This document shows, one piece after another, positions 23,585-30,628 of a DNA stretch of 34,014 bases. Every line of letters begins with the position of its first letter. Within the stretch, counting starts at the first letter, position 1. A program made the position numbers and the translations under genes. The DNA lies in NCBI GenBank assembly GCA_011045915.1, contig DSBT01000018.1:1-34014 (forward strand). Reading direction: 5' to 3'. The notes under the pieces were generated by a model that did not search any database, was not told the DNA's origin, and worked only from the letters and a program-made list of their open reading frames with translations. This DNA is from Mesotoga infera (GTDB lineage: Bacteria; Thermotogota; Thermotogae; Petrotogales; Kosmotogaceae).

Positions 23585-25711
23585 TCAAGAATCAGAAGGA
23601 TAGACTATGACAGCCTCCGATAGTTCTTCAAGTAACGAGGAGTCGTACAGCCTGTGAATCACGTATTTCACCAGCAGTTCCTCCGGAACGAATTTGTCGA
23701 GTTTCTCGCCAAAGAGATCATATTGTTTTCTCAGCTCTCCCGGCGTTCCTAAAAGATAGGTTGACAGAAGCCCCGATATTTCTCGACCTTCCATATTCGA
23801 AATCAAGCGCAACATCTCATGAATTTCATCAATGTCTGTCCCGCTCCTCACAACTACACTGTGCCAGTTAGCGCTCACAGCTTTTAGACCGGAAACAGCC
23901 TTTATGCACAGAGAAAGAAAGATGTTTGACATATCGCCTGCAAAGGTTTCTATTGATATGCTCTTCTTAAGTTTTGAAAGTGTTATCAAAGTGGAAGGAG
24001 CTTGGTGATTATCGAGAAAGTCGAGTACCATTTGTGAAGCGTCCGATGATAGGAAAACTCCATCGGGAATCTTCAGATCGTTCAACGAGGATCTTATGGA
24101 TCGCGCGAACTTTTTGGTCATCAACGAGCTGCCTCCAAACCATGAAGGAGTCTTTCCGCTGCTTCCGGGAATCACGTTTACGGTTTTCCTGCCTGCATTG
24201 ACTTCCTTGACCAAATAAGATCGTCCACCCAGAAGAAAGCTGACCTCATCGTCTGAAGCGCTATTTAGAACTGCAGGATGAATCTTTCCTATTTCATGCC
24301 CGTTGAGCTGAACCGAATATTCAATTCCGCCTGGGAACAGAACAACGAAATCCATCTTTTCCTTTCCGCTTCCCACAATCTCCGCAGTGGCGGCCCCTGA
24401 GATTAATGAAAGGCCCCTCCTTGCAAGAAAGCCCTCTTTCACAAGGTGATTCACCAGAATTCCGAATTCCTCTGTCTCGACCTTTCGGAAAGGGAAGGCT
24501 TCTTTGAGAAGCGCCAGGTCCTCTCTGGAGAGAATGCCCCTGGTTCTGGCAAGCCCAATCAACTGATGACCCAACAATGGAAGATGATAGTCGCTGGGTA
24601 GAAGCGGTTCGACAGATCCTTCACTTAACATTCCCAAAATTCCTAGAAGGTTGTACAGGCTTTGTGGATCCTCTATGAAGACGGAAATTGAAGACTTGTT
24701 GCCCTTTCTTCCTGCTCGTCCGGCCCTTTGAAGAAAAGAGGCAGTAGACGGCGGAATCTCAAGGAAGATCACTCGATCAATGTCACCGATATCTATACCC
24801 ATCTCCAAAGTCGACGTAGCAACTATTGCCCTTAGTTTGCTATCTTTCTTGAATTCCTCTTCGATCTCCACTCTTAGTGTTTTTGATACTGAACTATGGT
24901 GAACGGGGACTTCTATTCCGAGAGATTTAGCTCTGGCGGCAAATTCCTCAGCGCGCGCTCTTGAGTATGAGAAGACAAGAGTTTTATCGTCGGTTTCTTC
25001 AAGAAGCTTCGAAAGATATTCGGAAGGAGCTATTTCACCTTCGGTGAGAACTTCAATCGTTTTCTTGCTTCTGTTTCCATCGGTAACGATCACTGAATCT
25101 CTTTTTGAACTTCCCTTCAGCCACTCCAAAAGCAACTCAGGATTTCCTACCGTGGCAGACATAGCCATTCTCTGTTGATCTACACCAGATAGAATCTTTA
25201 TCCTCTCCATTAGTGAAGCGAGTTGAGCACCTCTCGGAGATTCAATGTAGGCGTGGACCTCATCCAGAACTATGAATTCAAGACCGGAAAGTAGATCACT
25301 ATTCTCGCTTAGAAAGATCCCTTCAACTGATTCCGGTGTAGTGACGAGTACCGAGGCTTCTCTTGCAATAGGCAACTTCTCTGATCTTGTCAAATCTCCG
25401 TGCCACTTTGCTGCTACTAACCCAAATGGTCTCAGCATGAGATCAAGGCGAGATGAAACATCGTTTATTAACGATTTGAGTGGGGCAAAGTAGATGCATT
25501 TCAGTCCGGCGGGAAGCTCCAGCAGTCTGTTGATGACGGGAATCATCACTGCTTCTGTCTTGCCAGAAGCAGTCCCCGCTATCAACAGCAGGTTTTTCCC
25601 GTCAAGAACTGAAGGAATGGTCTTGTTCTGAATCTCTCTAAAACTCTGCCAACGATATCTGTATGAGAACAGGTCTATCAATTTCTGATTGAGCCTTGGA
25701 TCGATTACCAC
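23585..25711 (-). CDS. Lhr-like superfamily 2 helicase, BrxHI-type
   Basis: DEAD/DEAH-type ATP-dependent helicase of 708 residues. The motifs in order are Walker A GTASGKT (46-52), TTPES (124-128), DEVH box (150-153), SAT (185-187), motif V ATSTLEMGIDIGDID (about 298-312) and motif VI QRAGRAGRKG (328-337). The C-terminal 350 residues are not a classical RecQ or UvrB arrangement and resemble the accessory half of Lhr-type helicases. The start is GTG 25711, overlapping the stop of the ATPase gene by 7 bases, so translation is coupled. A helicase of this kind is paired with a DUF2791 ATPase in type 2 BREX systems (BrxHI-BrxD). It acts on DNA or RNA in the cytoplasm; the target is unknown. Confidence 0.85.
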   Translation of the reverse strand: MVIDPRLNQKLIDLFSYRYRWQSFREIQNKTIPSVLDGKNLLLIAGTASGKTEAVMIPVINRLLELPAGLKCIYFAPLKSLINDVSSRLDLMLRPFGLVAAKWHGDLTRSEKLPIAREASVLVTTPESVEGIFLSENSDLLSGLEFIVLDEVHAYIESPRGAQLASLMERIKILSGVDQQRMAMSATVGNPELLLEWLKGSSKRDSVIVTDGNRSKKTIEVLTEGEIAPSEYLSKLLEETDDKTLVFSYSRARAEEFAARAKSLGIEVPVHHSSVSKTLRVEIEEEFKKDSKLRAIVATSTLEMGIDIGDIDRVIFLEIPPSTASFLQRAGRAGRKGNKSSISVFIEDPQSLYNLLGILGMLSEGSVEPLLPSDYHLPLLGHQLIGLARTRGILSREDLALLKEAFPFRKVETEEFGILVNHLVKEGFLARRGLSLISGAATAEIVGSGKEKMDFVVLFPGGIEYSVQLNGHEIGKIHPAVLNSASDDEVSFLLGGRSYLVKEVNAGRKTVNVIPGSSGKTPSWFGGSSLMTKKFARSIRSSLNDLKIPDGVFLSSDASQMVLDFLDNHQAPSTLITLSKLKKSISIETFAGDMSNIFLSLCIKAVSGLKAVSANWHSVVVRSGTDIDEIHEMLRLISNMEGREISGLLSTYLLGTPGELRKQYDLFGEKLDKFVPEELLVKYVIHRLYDSSLLEELSEAVIVYPSDS

Positions 25712-26898
25712 AACTGATCAGCAGCTTTCACCGAATTAGGGTCTCCAATTTCATCTGACTTATTACCCAGTCTCAGAGAGTCAAGTAGTTCAACAGTCAG
25801 CTTTGCTACTTCTCTGATGGAAGGCCTTAATTTTCCATCGATTCCAGTGTATTGCTTCACGAGGGTATCGATGGTTTTTTCTTCAAAAGCCGAGTCTGCT
25901 GTGAATGAATAGCAGTTCGAGTAAAGTGTCTTGATTTGCTTAATTAGCTGTCTAAGATCATCTCTTCCCAGAGGTTCAAGATTGAGAATCATGGTTTTTC
26001 CACTGCTATCACCGGAGATGTTTTTCATCCTGTCGTACAAAGCGTGGTATGATGCTATTCCTCTGTGCTTATTCTCAAACCATATGTCCGTCCCAAGCCA
26101 CAAAAAGTAAGTACTCTGTAGAAATCCTGAAGACATCTTGTCAATTATCTCGCGAAGCTGATTGAAAGTCCTATCCCTGACATCTCTCCTTCTATTCATA
26201 GTTGATTCAAGTTCATCCATTATTATTATTAGGCCGGGTACCTGCAAAGTATCCATCAAAGAAGTAAATGACTTCAAGAAGTTCCAGCCGTCATCTTGCA
26301 AGAAATGGTATATCCCGTGTTTCTTCATAGTTCTTTTGTCCACACTATCTCCAACGAGATATGCATAAAATTCTTCACCAGGAGACCCCTTACCTGCGCT
26401 GGCAACATAGGCTGCACAAAAGTGAGAGAACATTCCGTTGGGATCGTAATTGTCTCTGGTTGATAGATATTCTCTTACTGAATGCACATCATCAGCGGGT
26501 ATCTTCAGTTCTTCCAATTCAGTAAGAGTCTTTTCTGCCCATGCTCTGAGAAACATCTTCAAAGGGTTGCCGTTGATGCCCACCATTGTCATGTTCTTCA
26601 TTATCGACCTGAAAAACTCATCCTGTTTGTGAAGGGTGTCGTAGTCCTTTTCTGAAAGGCAAGAAATCATCAATCCCTTTTCCCTGGAGATATATTCGGC
26701 GTATCTTGCCAGAGTTGTCTTACCCAGACCGTATTCTCCCAGAAAGACCCTAACTTTGCTCTTTCCTGAGAGTACATAGTCAATGTCATTTTCAATTTCC
26801 ACTGTAAATTTTTCTCGGCCAGTCAAAATCTCCTTCACATAATCAACCGGAACGGCGGTCCCGGCTCTTATTGCCTCAAACATGGGGTGGTAATCCAC
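25705..26898 (-). CDS. BrxD-like P-loop ATPase (DUF2791, BREX ATP-binding domain)
   Basis: Cytoplasmic ATPase of 397 residues. Walker A is GEYGLGKTT (54-62), Walker B is LIIIMDELE (223-231), and the sequence after Walker B (MNRRRDVRDRTFNQLREIIDKM) and the WLGTD sensor-like segment near 268-272 fit the DUF2791/BrxD ATPases of BREX and related loci. The N-terminus (FEAIRAGTAVP) also fits this family. The start is GTG 26898 with AAGGAGA upstream on the minus strand. It lies 22 bases after the large unknown gene and overlaps the helicase gene. The helicase is its likely partner. Attribution to DUF2791 rests on motif memory, not a search. Confidence 0.75.
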   Translation of the reverse strand: MDYHPMFEAIRAGTAVPVDYVKEILTGREKFTVEIENDIDYVLSGKSKVRVFLGEYGLGKTTLARYAEYISREKGLMISCLSEKDYDTLHKQDEFFRSIMKNMTMVGINGNPLKMFLRAWAEKTLTELEELKIPADDVHSVREYLSTRDNYDPNGMFSHFCAAYVASAGKGSPGEEFYAYLVGDSVDKRTMKKHGIYHFLQDDGWNFLKSFTSLMDTLQVPGLIIIMDELESTMNRRRDVRDRTFNQLREIIDKMSSGFLQSTYFLWLGTDIWFENKHRGIASYHALYDRMKNISGDSSGKTMILNLEPLGRDDLRQLIKQIKTLYSNCYSFTADSAFEEKTIDTLVKQYTGIDGKLRPSIREVAKLTVELLDSLRLGNKSDEIGDPNSVKAADQLW

Positions 26899-26920
26899 AG
26901 AAATCTCCTTTCACTTTGCA

Positions 26921-28966
26921 TTATTCATCTGAAGCAAATCTCGCCCTGATCAGGTCCCTTGTTTCTTCGTCAAAGTTACATCCCCAGACCAGCTTCGGGA
27001 TATCACCGCCAATCACTTCAATAAGCGCTTTTCCGCCGGTAGTAATTTTCGGCGCGACTACAAAGACACTCCAGAAAGTCAATCCGAGTTCTTGAAGAGT
27101 GTATTCCTTTTCCGGCTCACAAGAAAGAATCTTGCAGACAGTCTTTCGTGTCTTTCCCGAGAGTGCTTCGATTTTCTCTTCAAGCTCTCTAAAGCCATTT
27201 CTCTCTTCATGAACAGGCTCCGAATAAACGTGGCTAGTCTCGGCTGTTTCTAATTCGGGAAAAAGATACGTCCACTCCAGTTCATTTATTCTCTTGGCAG
27301 ACCATTCGAGTTCATAATGAAGAGAGTTTATTTTCTCCAGCAAATCTGCTGTTATTGGGTCTTCTTCCTTATATTCGGGTGACTCAAGAATTTCGCCATC
27401 TTCGTCCTCTTCTACCAGCCTTTGTACTATCAGATCTTCTACTGTTTCTTTGTTGTCATTATTGTATTCTGAACCCTCTTCACGAAACTCTGACTTATTC
27501 CTGGTCTTCGCTTTCAACGGTGCGGGAAGGCCATTTTGGGGATACTCTTTCCACGAAGACATGATTCGAGTTTGCTTCAAGAACTCTATGAAAGTCCTAG
27601 CACTCTCTTCTTTTGCAAAGAAAAGCTTCATTAAAGGGACTCCGTAACCCGTCGCAGAGACGGTCACTACATAGTAATTGAAACACTCTATTCTTTCGTT
27701 GTTCTTCGCCTCTTTGTCAGGACCGCCTCCGGGGAGGATATACTTCCAGGTGTATCCAACGAAGAGCGCATCTTTACTGTCCAGAAATGCTTCTCTTGAA
27801 AGTTTTAGCTCTTCCAACTTCGTCCTAATCGAGTTGAAAGGGAAGCTTCTTCCTGCTTTCTTTAGGCCCGATGATGTTATTGTAAGATCATCAACCATGC
27901 AAAGAACAAAGACTCCGTTGCTTTCTTCCCCCTTCACTATGCGAAACTCACTCCTTCTTGCCGAATACCTCATTGTCTCGCCTGCGTGAGCCAAAGGGTC
28001 TTTGATCTGTCGCTCTTCGACAATCGTCCAGCAAGCCCAACCGGCAATAGCCTTCTGAAAAGATGGGAGGATTTGACCGCTTATCCTTTCGAAATACCAC
28101 TTTCGGGCCTCTTCCCAGTAACTTTGACAAAGCCCGTACTCCGTTCTTGCCTCTTTTATTCCTTCTAGCCATGAAGCGAGAGTCCCATGCCTTCTCAATC
28201 CCTTTTCAAGGAAAGATACAAAGAGATTGTCAGGGACTTTTAGCCAGTTCATGAAAGTTGAAGAGTATTTCTTTATTTCCCTAACAATTGTTTCAAGTCG
28301 GGACAGCTGAACTTCTATGCTACTTTCATCATATTCACCTACTGCCAGCTTGATCTGATTCTCCAAAAACCTGCATACTCCTTCTTCCTCAGGCGGAAAC
28401 TGTGAGAGAAAATCAATCAGATCAGACTCAATCATCGGAAGCAATGAGGAGTCAAGATAGAAAAGTCTTGACACAATTTCATTCAGGGGAAGGTTCGCTC
28501 CTAATTGATCGGCCGTCCTCCGCACTCTCTCGTAAAGAATCTTGAGCTCCCTCAGACCTGTTATCAGAGATTCAGATTCATCGACTATTTGATTTGCGTA
28601 ATGAACTACTATTCTCTCAAGAATCTGAGGCGCCTCTTTGAAGTAATCTAGAAAAGGCAGAAAACTCTCTTCCAAGCGTGGGTTTTCAGTGGCTGCTTTC
28701 AAGAATATTTCAAGCAGGTCGGAGGTTTTGTCCGATGTTTCAGAAAGTAGTTCGCCTTCAGCATTCCTAAATATGAAAGAATATCTAGTGTCAAATAGTT
28801 TTTTGAAAATATTTGCCACAAGCGGAGTTTTGAGAGATACTAGAGCAGCATTTGAATTCTCGATAAGCGGCTTCCAGTTCCTACCCTCAAGACTCTCATT
28901 GGCTTTCTCAATAACGTCTTCTTCAGACAAAAATGTAAAGAATTCCCGATAACGAGAACTAGACAA
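26921..28966 (-). CDS. Large protein of unknown function in the BrxD/helicase operon (about 681 residues)
   Basis: Not recognised. The first 270 residues look all-helical, rich in Leu and Glu, with repeat-like helices. The middle part (about 300-480) has hydrophobic strands and tryptophans (AGWACWTIVEERQ, GVFVLCMVDDLTI, YTWKYILPGGG, YYVVTVSATGYGVPLMKLFF). A very acidic linker follows (about 500-540), and then a C-terminal domain starting near ALSGKTRKTVCKIL. No catalytic motif is clear. I chose TTG 28966, which has AGTGAGGGA six bases upstream; an in-frame TTG at 28996 lies just after a minus-strand TATAAT (29006-29001) and has no ribosome site. No other good start codon is close. By position it is the specific component of this operon, perhaps a recognition or scaffold subunit (inference). 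Confidence 0.75.
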   Translation of the reverse strand: MSSSRYREFFTFLSEEDVIEKANESLEGRNWKPLIENSNAALVSLKTPLVANIFKKLFDTRYSFIFRNAEGELLSETSDKTSDLLEIFLKAATENPRLEESFLPFLDYFKEAPQILERIVVHYANQIVDESESLITGLRELKILYERVRRTADQLGANLPLNEIVSRLFYLDSSLLPMIESDLIDFLSQFPPEEEGVCRFLENQIKLAVGEYDESSIEVQLSRLETIVREIKKYSSTFMNWLKVPDNLFVSFLEKGLRRHGTLASWLEGIKEARTEYGLCQSYWEEARKWYFERISGQILPSFQKAIAGWACWTIVEERQIKDPLAHAGETMRYSARRSEFRIVKGEESNGVFVLCMVDDLTITSSGLKKAGRSFPFNSIRTKLEELKLSREAFLDSKDALFVGYTWKYILPGGGPDKEAKNNERIECFNYYVVTVSATGYGVPLMKLFFAKEESARTFIEFLKQTRIMSSWKEYPQNGLPAPLKAKTRNKSEFREEGSEYNNDNKETVEDLIVQRLVEEDEDGEILESPEYKEEDPITADLLEKINSLHYELEWSAKRINELEWTYLFPELETAETSHVYSEPVHEERNGFRELEEKIEALSGKTRKTVCKILSCEPEKEYTLQELGLTFWSVFVVAPKITTGGKALIEVIGGDIPKLVWGCNFDEETRDLIRARFASDE

Positions 28967-29048
28967 AGTATATCCCTCACTTAAGGTGACGTCCAAGTTG
29001 ATTATACTACACTTGAGAAGGCCGGTTATCAGCCTCAGAATCGATCTT

Positions 29049-29528
29049 CTAGCGTTCGATTTCCCGGTCGATCAGTTCCGCAAGATCCATCAATCTTTCC
29101 GCAATGAGAGCTTTGTTTTGACATGCTCTCAAAAATCTTTGATCCTTTACAAGAGATGGAAGACTCTCCCCAACTTTCTCCAGTCTGGAAATTGCCAACA
29201 GAAGGTAAGCGCCGTCAATTAGCTTTCTTACGATTATGGGCAGCTTTTCTGGCTTATCGTATGCTGTCCTTTCAATGTCTGAAAATAAAAAGTTGATCGA
29301 CTCAAGTATCACTTTGAATGAGAAAAGCAGAATGTCTTCTTTTGTGTCCAAAGGTAAGCTTTCAAGCCTTCTGAGCTCCGTCTTAATCTCTGCCACTGCC
29401 AGTCTAGACTGTGAAGGGTCTTCAAGATACTTCTCCATTCTTTCCGCAGTGATTCCAAACAGATCGGCAATATCATCGGCGCTGCGCCCCTCGGATAGAA
29501 GCTTACGCAAAAAGTCCTTCTTGCTCAT
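29049..29528 (-). CDS. Helix-turn-helix protein with helical C-terminal domain, first gene of the BrxD/helicase operon
   Basis: Protein of 159 residues. Residues about 5-35 (LRKLLSEGRSADDIADLFGITAERMEKYLED) form a good helix-turn-helix of the kind used in transposase- or sigma-like DNA-binding domains. The rest is helical with a hydrophobic core (LLFSFKVILESINFLFSDI and IDGAYLLLAISRLEKV). It may regulate the operon or bind DNA as a component of the system. The start ATG 29528 follows GAGGTGATC on the minus strand, and a promoter lies about 20 bases upstream. The next gene starts 83 bases downstream of its stop. The family was not recognised. Confidence 0.75.
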   Translation of the reverse strand: MSKKDFLRKLLSEGRSADDIADLFGITAERMEKYLEDPSQSRLAVAEIKTELRRLESLPLDTKEDILLFSFKVILESINFLFSDIERTAYDKPEKLPIIVRKLIDGAYLLLAISRLEKVGESLPSLVKDQRFLRACQNKALIAERLMDLAELIDREIER

Positions 29529-29545
29529 AGGATCACCTCAACTCA

Positions 29546-29574
29546 ATTATATAACCAGTTTTCCAGCATTTTAA
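29546..29574 (-). promoter_or_regulatory. Promoter of the HTH/BrxD/helicase operon
   Basis: On the minus strand TTAAAA (29574-29569), a 17-base spacer and a perfect TATAAT (29551-29546). The predicted start, near 29539, lies just before the ribosome site of the HTH gene. Confidence 0.55.
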
Positions 29575-29677
29575 GAGCACAGCAACAGAATCAGGGATCT
29601 GTTCGATCAAGTACGTGTTCTTAGAATAGGCGGGTTATTGGACTCATTTGTATTAGAATATGCCTGGAGGTGGTACT

Positions 29678-30628
29678 ATGAGAAAAGCAATTCCGTTGAT
29701 TATCGTTCTCTTTGCCGCCGCCTTCCTATGTGCTAGTGCCTTCCACTTTGGTTATGGGTTTAATGGATTGCTGGAAGTTTCCGTCGAAGACCAGGAGTGG
29801 AGAGTCAGAATCATTCCCGTGACTTCATTGTCAAGTGGAGGAGTCGCAGCTGGGGGCATTGTCTTCAATGTACTCGGGGATAAAGGGTTCGCGATTCTCT
29901 CCGCTCTTCAGCCTGAGAATTACCGCATAGTGGACACTTTTCATTGTGAAGCGATCGATGTCAATATCGAAAGACTTGAGGTCTTCGTTGCTGATGGAAC
30001 TCACGGGCTTGAGATTTTCAAGTTCTTCGGACTGAACTTCTACAAACACGTCCAAACGATACCTATGAAAGGATGGATAAGCACTGTCTCGTATATTGAC
30101 GATTACGTGTTTGCTGGAAGCGAGCTTGATGGGCTGTTTATAGTGAGGAGAGGAGAGAATGGATTCGAACTTGTCGACCATATTCTGCCGCGTTATATAA
30201 ATGATATTGAAACAGGAATAACGGTAAACGCCATTTCAGCATCGCAATACTCATTCTACGTTGCTGCGGGAGACCGGGGAGTTCTGGTCTTCGAGAAAGA
30301 TGGATTCACACTCAGGCAGAAATCTGAAATTCCGGTCAGCTACGCAATGGATGTAGCGGTTCTTGATGGGGAGGTTTTCGTAGCAGATTCCAGGGAGAGA
30401 AAGATAAAGATTTTCTGTGAGGCAGATTGTATTCTGAAGGAAAGCTATAGCACAGACAGTACTCCTAGAGAGCTTGTCCCCGTCAACGACTGGCAGCACA
30501 ACAGGAAGATGATTCTGTGCCGTTTTGATGATTCAATCTCTGTTTTCAGCAGAGATAATTTTCAAGAACTGTTTTCCCTGAGAGGCACCTTTTTCGGTAT
30601 AGTAGAGCCGAGATATCTCTTTAACTAG
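29678..30628 (+). CDS. Secreted protein with beta-propeller-like repeats, function unknown
   Basis: Protein of 316 residues with a signal peptide (MRKAIPLIIVLFAAAFLCASAF). The remainder is built from repeated units of roughly 40-45 residues ending in strand pairs such as ERLEVFVADGTHGLEIFKF, DYVFAGSELDGLFIVRR, SFYVAAGDRGVLVFEKDG and GEVFVADSRERKIKIFCE. The recurring pattern (V/A)AxxxxG(L/V)xIF is typical of LVIVD or WD-like propellers, which usually bind proteins or sugars. Two cysteines near the end of the repeats (FCEADCIL) could pair. The start ATG 29678 follows GGAGGTGG; an ATG at 29660 precedes that site. Its stop overlaps the stop of the converging sugar permease gene within CTAG. Confidence 0.72.
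   Translation: MRKAIPLIIVLFAAAFLCASAFHFGYGFNGLLEVSVEDQEWRVRIIPVTSLSSGGVAAGGIVFNVLGDKGFAILSALQPENYRIVDTFHCEAIDVNIERLEVFVADGTHGLEIFKFFGLNFYKHVQTIPMKGWISTVSYIDDYVFAGSELDGLFIVRRGENGFELVDHILPRYINDIETGITVNAISASQYSFYVAAGDRGVLVFEKDGFTLRQKSEIPVSYAMDVAVLDGEVFVADSRERKIKIFCEADCILKESYSTDSTPRELVPVNDWQHNRKMILCRFDDSISVFSRDNFQELFSLRGTFFGIVEPRYLFN

What the first reader, a model, noticed from the sequence alone, without database searches (positions are those of the whole stretch)
23585..29528. Four-gene operon: HTH protein, large unknown protein, BrxD-like ATPase, Lhr/BrxHI-like helicase
The ATPase and helicase genes are adjacent and overlapping, as in type 2 BREX, yet no PglZ phosphatase-like, PglX methyltransferase or PglW kinase gene is in the window. 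A dedicated HTH protein and a 681-residue unrecognised protein take their place. The four genes share strand and a promoter at 29546-29574. This could be a stand-alone antiphage or DNA/RNA-processing system built on the BrxD-BrxHI engine. The ATPase and helicase motifs are seen directly; the family names and the defence role are inferred.
Basis: partly seen in the sequence, partly recalled or inferred. Interest (0 to 1): 0.78.

Follow-up and report, generated by a model that had tools for sequence, protein, structure and literature searches.

The report
Shango-like helicase operon, unknown partner protein
A four-gene bacterial operon pairs a DNA helicase and an ATPase, of the kind used by the BREX and Shango virus-defence systems, with a large protein that matches nothing in the databases searched; it looks like a separate branch of such systems kept throughout one genus of Thermotogota bacteria, and its function is untested.

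Summary
Four minus-strand genes (29528 to 23585) form one operon: an HTH protein (P4, 159 aa), a 681-aa protein with no database match (P3), a PF10923 AAA+ ATPase and an Lhr/BrxHI-type helicase. The promoter -10 box is invariant in eight genus members. All four genes are under purifying selection (dN/dS about 0.04-0.13) and keep one position across the genus; one species has lost the ATPase and helicase, another has a frameshifted helicase.

It is not BREX (no PglZ, PglX or PglW beside it). But P3 has no TerB domains and no detectable similarity to Shango A proteins, and in both trees the ATPase and helicase form a third branch, apart from BREX and Shango.

In other genera of the family the A protein varies (P3, P3 with inserted WD40 repeats, or membrane-anchored WD40) but always ends in the same ~90-aa domain, proposed here as the coupling module. 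Most likely it is a Shango-like, ATPase-loaded helicase with its own sensor. Defence is plausible but unproven: the setting is not a defence island and inheritance within the genus is vertical. New variant of a known kind.

The parts
29546..29574 (-). promoter (TTAAAA-17-TATAAT) of the four-gene operon
   Evidence: 10 of 12 consensus matches; ATATAAT invariant in eight genus members; the -35 hexamer is not conserved
29049..29528 (-). P4, 159-aa protein; helix-turn-helix at residues 7-36 (29421-29510), rest helical
   Evidence: weak HTH_7 hit; profile matches the repeated HTH of designed protein 8vd6; found only in this genus
26921..28966 (-). P3, 681-aa protein of unknown family, the 'A' protein of the system
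   Evidence: no hit in Pfam, PADLOC or NCBIfam; conserved in 10 of 10 genus members; AlphaFold2 model
28043..28726 (-). P3 helical bundle, residues 81-308
   Evidence: AlphaFold2 model, pLDDT mostly 80-94
27545..28033 (-). P3 beta domain with C-terminal helix, residues 312-474; possibly PH-like
   Evidence: AlphaFold2 of the domain alone, pTM 0.79; Foldseek not significant, PH/PTB/FERM domains recur among weak hits
27200..27544 (-). P3 disordered linker, residues 475-589; the place where WD40 repeats are inserted in G015 and G016
   Evidence: pLDDT below 50; alignment A1; Pfam
26924..27199 (-). P3 C-terminal module, residues 590-681, the only part shared by all A proteins of the family
   Evidence: leave-one-out profiles, E 3e-10 to 4e-34 at Z=100,000
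25705..26898 (-). PF10923 (BrxC/BrxD/SngB-type) AAA+ ATPase, 397 aa
   Evidence: E 8e-43; BrxD 4e-37 and SngB 5e-22; Walker A and B intact
23585..25711 (-). BrxHI/SngC/Lhr-type superfamily 2 helicase, 708 aa
   Evidence: DEAD 9e-34, Helicase_C 1e-24; BrxHI 1e-131, SngC 3e-105; motifs intact

Best explanation
The operon encodes a third, apparently undescribed branch of the BrxD-BrxHI type ATPase-helicase systems, laid out like Shango (A protein, ATPase, helicase) but with an unrelated A protein. Proposed working: P3, with the HTH protein P4, recognises an aberrant or foreign DNA state; the C-terminal module of P3 engages the ORC/Cdc6-like ATPase; the ATPase loads or activates the Lhr-type helicase on that DNA; the helicase unwinds or clears it and so blocks its replication or expression. 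Anti-phage or anti-plasmid defence is the most likely purpose. Shown: gene order, promoter, intact ATPase and helicase motifs, purifying selection, co-conservation, separate clade, one shared C-terminal module with swapped front parts. Inferred: complex formation, the loading step, DNA as target, defence.
For: ATPase and helicase best match components of two anti-phage systems, BREX type 2 and Shango (Shango restricts phages, PMC10250203; BrxD and BrxHI are a tightly linked dyad and BrxD is proposed to load BrxHI, PMC12839542). Same gene order as Shango. All 4 genomes outside the genus that have the ATPase also have the helicase and an A protein with the same C-terminal module. Fast divergence compared with most neighbours (P3 52%, helicase 62%, ATPase 72% against 82-91% for most flanking genes, window against G006) and decay in G008 and G006 fit a defence gene more than an essential one.
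Against: Vertical inheritance and one fixed position in the whole genus, no mobile genes and no defence genes around it in any genome looked at; no phage was tested; P3 has no recognisable effector domain; the divergently transcribed NHL-like neighbour diverges as fast as P3, so fast divergence alone is weak evidence.
Confidence: 0.5

Rival explanations
1. A housekeeping or stress-response nucleic-acid processing complex (repair, replication restart or transcription-linked helicase), inherited vertically, that uses the same kind of ATPase-loaded helicase but is not a defence system.
For: P3 in 10 of 10 genus members at one position, RpoB-like branching within the genus; purifying selection; housekeeping surroundings, in G015 and G016 directly downstream of rpoB-rpoC; Lhr-type helicases outside defence act in DNA repair (general knowledge).
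Against: Absent from genus g4 of the family and from most of the phylum; ATPase and helicase lost in G008 and helicase frame broken in G006; evolves faster than most neighbours; both known users of this ATPase-helicase pair are anti-phage systems.
Confidence: 0.35
2. A diverged Shango system whose A protein has lost recognisable TerB similarity.
For: Same order and sizes, SngB and SngC model hits; A protein of similar length; the G002 A protein is membrane-anchored, as SngA proteins appear to be.
Against: Profile of five SngA proteins finds held-out SngA at 1e-137 to 1e-144 but gives P3 and its relatives no real score; profile-profile probability 0.1-0.2%; ATPase and helicase outside the SngB and SngC clades.
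Confidence: 0.1
3. A BREX type 2 remnant, or the ATPase-helicase part of a BREX encoded elsewhere in the genome.
For: The helicase is nearest to the BrxHI model; some genus members have PglZ-family proteins above cut-off elsewhere (G006, G008, G010, G012).
Against: This genome has no PglZ above cut-off; G008 has a PglZ but lost the ATPase and helicase; the ATPase scores 128 bits against a BrxD equivalog cut-off of 350; own clade; P3 and P4 match no BREX protein.
Confidence: 0.05

Closest known systems
Shango (SngABC; PMC10250203)
   Same: Three-part operon in the order A protein, PF10923 ATPase, superfamily 2 helicase; ATPase and helicase match the SngB and SngC models.
   Different: SngA has TerB_N, TerB and TerB_C; P3 has none and no detectable similarity. 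ATPase and helicase form a separate clade. Extra HTH gene. Chromosomal and vertical rather than in defence hotspots or plasmids.
BrxD-BrxHI dyad of BREX type 2 (PMC12839542)
   Same: Adjacent ATPase and Lhr/Ski2-type helicase genes, same order; helicase matches the BrxHI model over its whole length.
   Different: No PglZ, PglX, PglW or BrxC; ATPase far below the BrxD equivalog cut-off; separate clade.
Orphan ATPase-helicase operons of Deinococcus psychrotolerans (L057) and Aulosira laxa (L077) plasmids
   Same: PF10923 ATPase plus Lhr-like helicase with partner proteins that belong neither to Shango nor to BREX.
   Different: Partners (LRV/coiled-coil; a second ATPase and a 279-aa protein) are unrelated to P3; on plasmids, the Aulosira one right after a BREX operon.

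Membership tests
Shango | A protein with TerB_N, TerB and TerB_C domains | tested here: not met
   no TerB hit in P3 or its relatives; hhalign 0.1-0.2%; SngA profile negative with working positive controls; no TerB_N above cut-off in 17 family genomes
Shango | PF10923 ATPase and DEAD/DEAH helicase downstream in the same operon | tested here: met
Shango | ATPase and helicase belong to the SngB and SngC clades | tested here: not met
   own supported clade in both trees
Shango | anti-phage activity | not testable with these tools
   needs phage challenge
BREX type 2 | PglZ, PglX and PglW beside BrxD and BrxHI | tested here: not met
   none among window genes scanned; no PglZ above cut-off in this genome
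BREX type 2 | BrxD equivalog | tested here: not met
   NF033438 128 bits, cut-off 350
BrxD/BrxHI-type ATPase-helicase dyads (broad kind) | PF10923 ATPase with intact Walker motifs next to a helicase that matches BrxHI/SngC over its full length | tested here: met

The most novel reading that the evidence does not exclude
One ATPase-loaded helicase engine is plugged, through a common C-terminal module, into interchangeable sensor proteins (P3, P3 with WD40, membrane-bound WD40), and in this genus it serves as a chromosomal, vertically inherited genome-surveillance machine rather than a mobile defence system.
Probability: 0.3. Interest if true: 0.7.

Novelty: new variant of a known kind. Interest (0 to 1): 0.5.

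Why it matters
The BrxD-BrxHI pair is a part of BREX and Shango whose job is not known. A separate branch with its own partner protein, plus further swaps in Deinococcus and Aulosira, suggests that the pair is a general engine into which different sensors are plugged. The shared 90-aa C-terminal module gives a concrete, testable candidate for the docking site. If the system is not a defence system, it would show that this pair also has a resident cellular role.

Tried and rejected
BREX membership and Shango membership were tested and not met. Foldseek of whole P3 against PDB and viral models found nothing at E <= 0.001; the beta domain alone gave only weak hits, many of them PH/PTB/FERM domains, so 'PH-like' is an impression, not a result. 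P4 and the small protein of other genera are not demonstrably homologous (probability 0.8%). The low E-value of P4 against 8vd6 sums five weak matches to one repeated helix-turn-helix and supports only the HTH. The weak JetB3 hit (1.6e-3) of the small protein of G002 was not pursued. No phage or viral-contig homologues, no plasmid homologue of P3. The distant ATPases of family f6 lack a helicase partner and sit beside chemotaxis or HD-domain genes, so they are something else. The genome scan with the ATPase used narrow patterns and returned six loci of this family only, so absence from other phyla is not shown.

Full report
WHAT IS THERE. From promoter to end, on the minus strand: P4 (29528-29049, 159 aa), P3 (28966-26921, 681 aa), the ATPase (26898-25705, 397 aa) and the helicase (25711-23585, 708 aa; 7-bp overlap with the ATPase gene). 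A 691-aa reading of P3 from 28996 exists, but the 681-aa start has a GAGGG ribosome-binding site and matches homologues in length. The promoter-like site at 29546-29574 is not significant in a bare scan (8 found, 7.9 expected), but in an alignment of eight genus members the ATATAAT box and the GGTGAT ribosome-binding site are invariant.

FAMILIES. The ATPase is PF10923, BrxC/BrxD (E 8e-43), with intact Walker A and B. It is below the curated BrxD equivalog cut-off (128 against 350 bits) and matches the PADLOC models BrxD (4e-37) and SngB (5e-22). The helicase matches BrxHI (1e-131) and SngC (3e-105) over its full length; its nearest solved structures by sequence are ATP-dependent DNA helicases 5v9x and 7lhl, which from general knowledge I take to be Lhr enzymes. 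P3 matches nothing in Pfam, NCBIfam or PADLOC at a meaningful E-value, and no solved structure by sequence. P4 has only a helix-turn-helix at residues 7-36.

CONSERVATION. P3 is in all ten genomes of the genus (record titles of near relatives read Mesotoga or Kosmotogaceae), at one syntenic position between a C69 peptidase and an NHL-like gene plus ABC transporter genes. The ATPase is in nine of ten. In G008 the ATPase and helicase are gone and a group II intron maturase lies in the gap beside an intact P3; that assembly is fragmented, with 7% contamination. In G006 the helicase frame breaks near residue 560, real or a sequencing error. For close pairs dN/dS is 0.04-0.13 in the four genes. Between the window and G006, P3 is 52% identical, the helicase 62%, the ATPase 72%, most flanking genes 82-91% and the NHL-like neighbour 48%. 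Branching within the genus agrees with RpoB, so descent there is vertical.

OTHER GENERA OF THE FAMILY. Four further genomes have the ATPase and helicase, each with an A protein beside them, at unrelated loci. G001 has a 657-aa P3 relative and no small gene. G015 and G016 have a P3 with WD40 repeats inserted where the window protein has a disordered linker, directly downstream of rpoC. G002 has a protein made of hydrophobic N-terminal segments, WD40 repeats and the C-terminal domain. The only part common to all is the last ~90 residues; leave-one-out profiles find it in each, with E 3e-10 to 4e-34 at a database size of 100,000. The three g4 genomes have neither P3 nor ATPase. A small gene of other sequence stands between A protein and ATPase in G002, G015 and G016 and is not demonstrably related to P4.

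STRUCTURE. AlphaFold2 on six sequences (mean pLDDT 71.5) gives an N-terminal alpha/beta part, a long helical bundle (81-308), a beta domain with C-terminal helix (312-474), a disordered stretch (475-589) and the small C-terminal domain (590-681). The beta domain alone folds with pTM 0.79. Foldseek finds no significant match for either. PH, PTB and FERM domains recur among the weak hits, so a PH-like fold is possible but not shown.

SHANGO TEST. The nearest system is Shango: TerB-domain protein, ATPase and helicase, anti-phage in P. aeruginosa and found in E. coli (PMC10250203). Shango loci fetched from Sulfitobacter, Cetobacterium, a haloarchaeon, Rhizorhabdus, Burkholderia and Moraxella all have TerB-domain A proteins. 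The profile of five of them finds held-out SngA proteins at 1e-137 to 1e-144 but gives P3 negative bits; profile-profile probability is 0.1-0.2%. Trees of ATPase and helicase put this family in its own well supported clade, apart from SngB/SngC and from BrxD/BrxHI, in two samplings; branches are long and the deep order is unsure. TerB_N above cut-off is absent from all 17 family genomes. So it works like Shango in outline but is not Shango by its defining feature.

BREX TEST. No PglZ, PglX or PglW among the window genes scanned, and no PglZ above cut-off in this genome, although four other genus members have one elsewhere. Not BREX.

THE WIDER PATTERN. A Deinococcus plasmid carries the same kind of ATPase-helicase pair with a leucine-rich-repeat-variant, coiled-coil protein. 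An Aulosira plasmid has, after a type 2 BREX-like operon, a second pair with an extra PF10923 ATPase and a 279-aa protein. With BREX 2, Shango and the present family, the pair appears with at least five sets of partners. The published proposal that BrxD loads BrxHI (PMC12839542) fits a reusable engine.

MECHANISM. Shown: operon, motifs, selection, co-occurrence, modular A proteins with one shared end. Inferred: P3 (and P4) sense a DNA or cell state; the C-terminal module docks on the ATPase; the ATPase loads the helicase; the helicase clears or blocks the target DNA. Defence is favoured (0.5) because the two characterised users of this pair are anti-phage and because the genes diverge fast and decay in some species. 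A housekeeping or stress role (0.35) is favoured by genus-wide vertical inheritance and the lack of any defence island. The data do not decide between them.

LIMITS. Distribution outside Thermotogota could not be mapped: the genome scan used narrow patterns and found only this family; plasmid, phage and viral collections hold no P3 or ATPase relative of this branch.

Noticed in passing
L098, L099, L100 (G003, G009, G006); also G007, G012, G015: A second, divergent RpoB-like protein (open frames of about 1300 aa, 31-34% identical to the C-terminal half of RpoB) is present in several genomes of the family.
   Followed up: no
L057 3930-16876: Deinococcus psychrotolerans plasmid: LRV/coiled-coil protein plus PF10923 ATPase plus helicase; a second ATPase-helicase copy follows on the same plasmid, its helicase with the same protein accession.
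   Followed up: partly
L077 11258-16652: Aulosira laxa plasmid: after a type 2 BREX-like operon comes a second, very divergent unit of two PF10923 ATPases, a helicase and a 279-aa protein.
   Followed up: partly
L058 1164-2396; L059 8362-9597; L060 1174-2409: In Thermotogota family f6 a PF10923 ATPase follows a 242-273-aa protein and stands beside a chemotaxis-receptor-like or HD-domain gene, without a helicase; in two genomes an alpha-2-macroglobulin gene is upstream.
   Followed up: partly
L027 100-6244; L028 6926-17902: In genus g5 the operon lies directly downstream of rpoC on the same strand (rpoB and rpoC in L028), and its A protein carries WD40 repeats.
   Followed up: partly
window 29660-30628: The divergently transcribed NHL-like gene beside the operon evolves as fast as P3 (48% identity to G006; dN/dS 0.12-0.17 in close pairs).
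   Followed up: no
L024 6982-9115: In G008 a group II intron maturase lies where the ATPase and helicase genes would be, while P3 is intact.
   Followed up: partly
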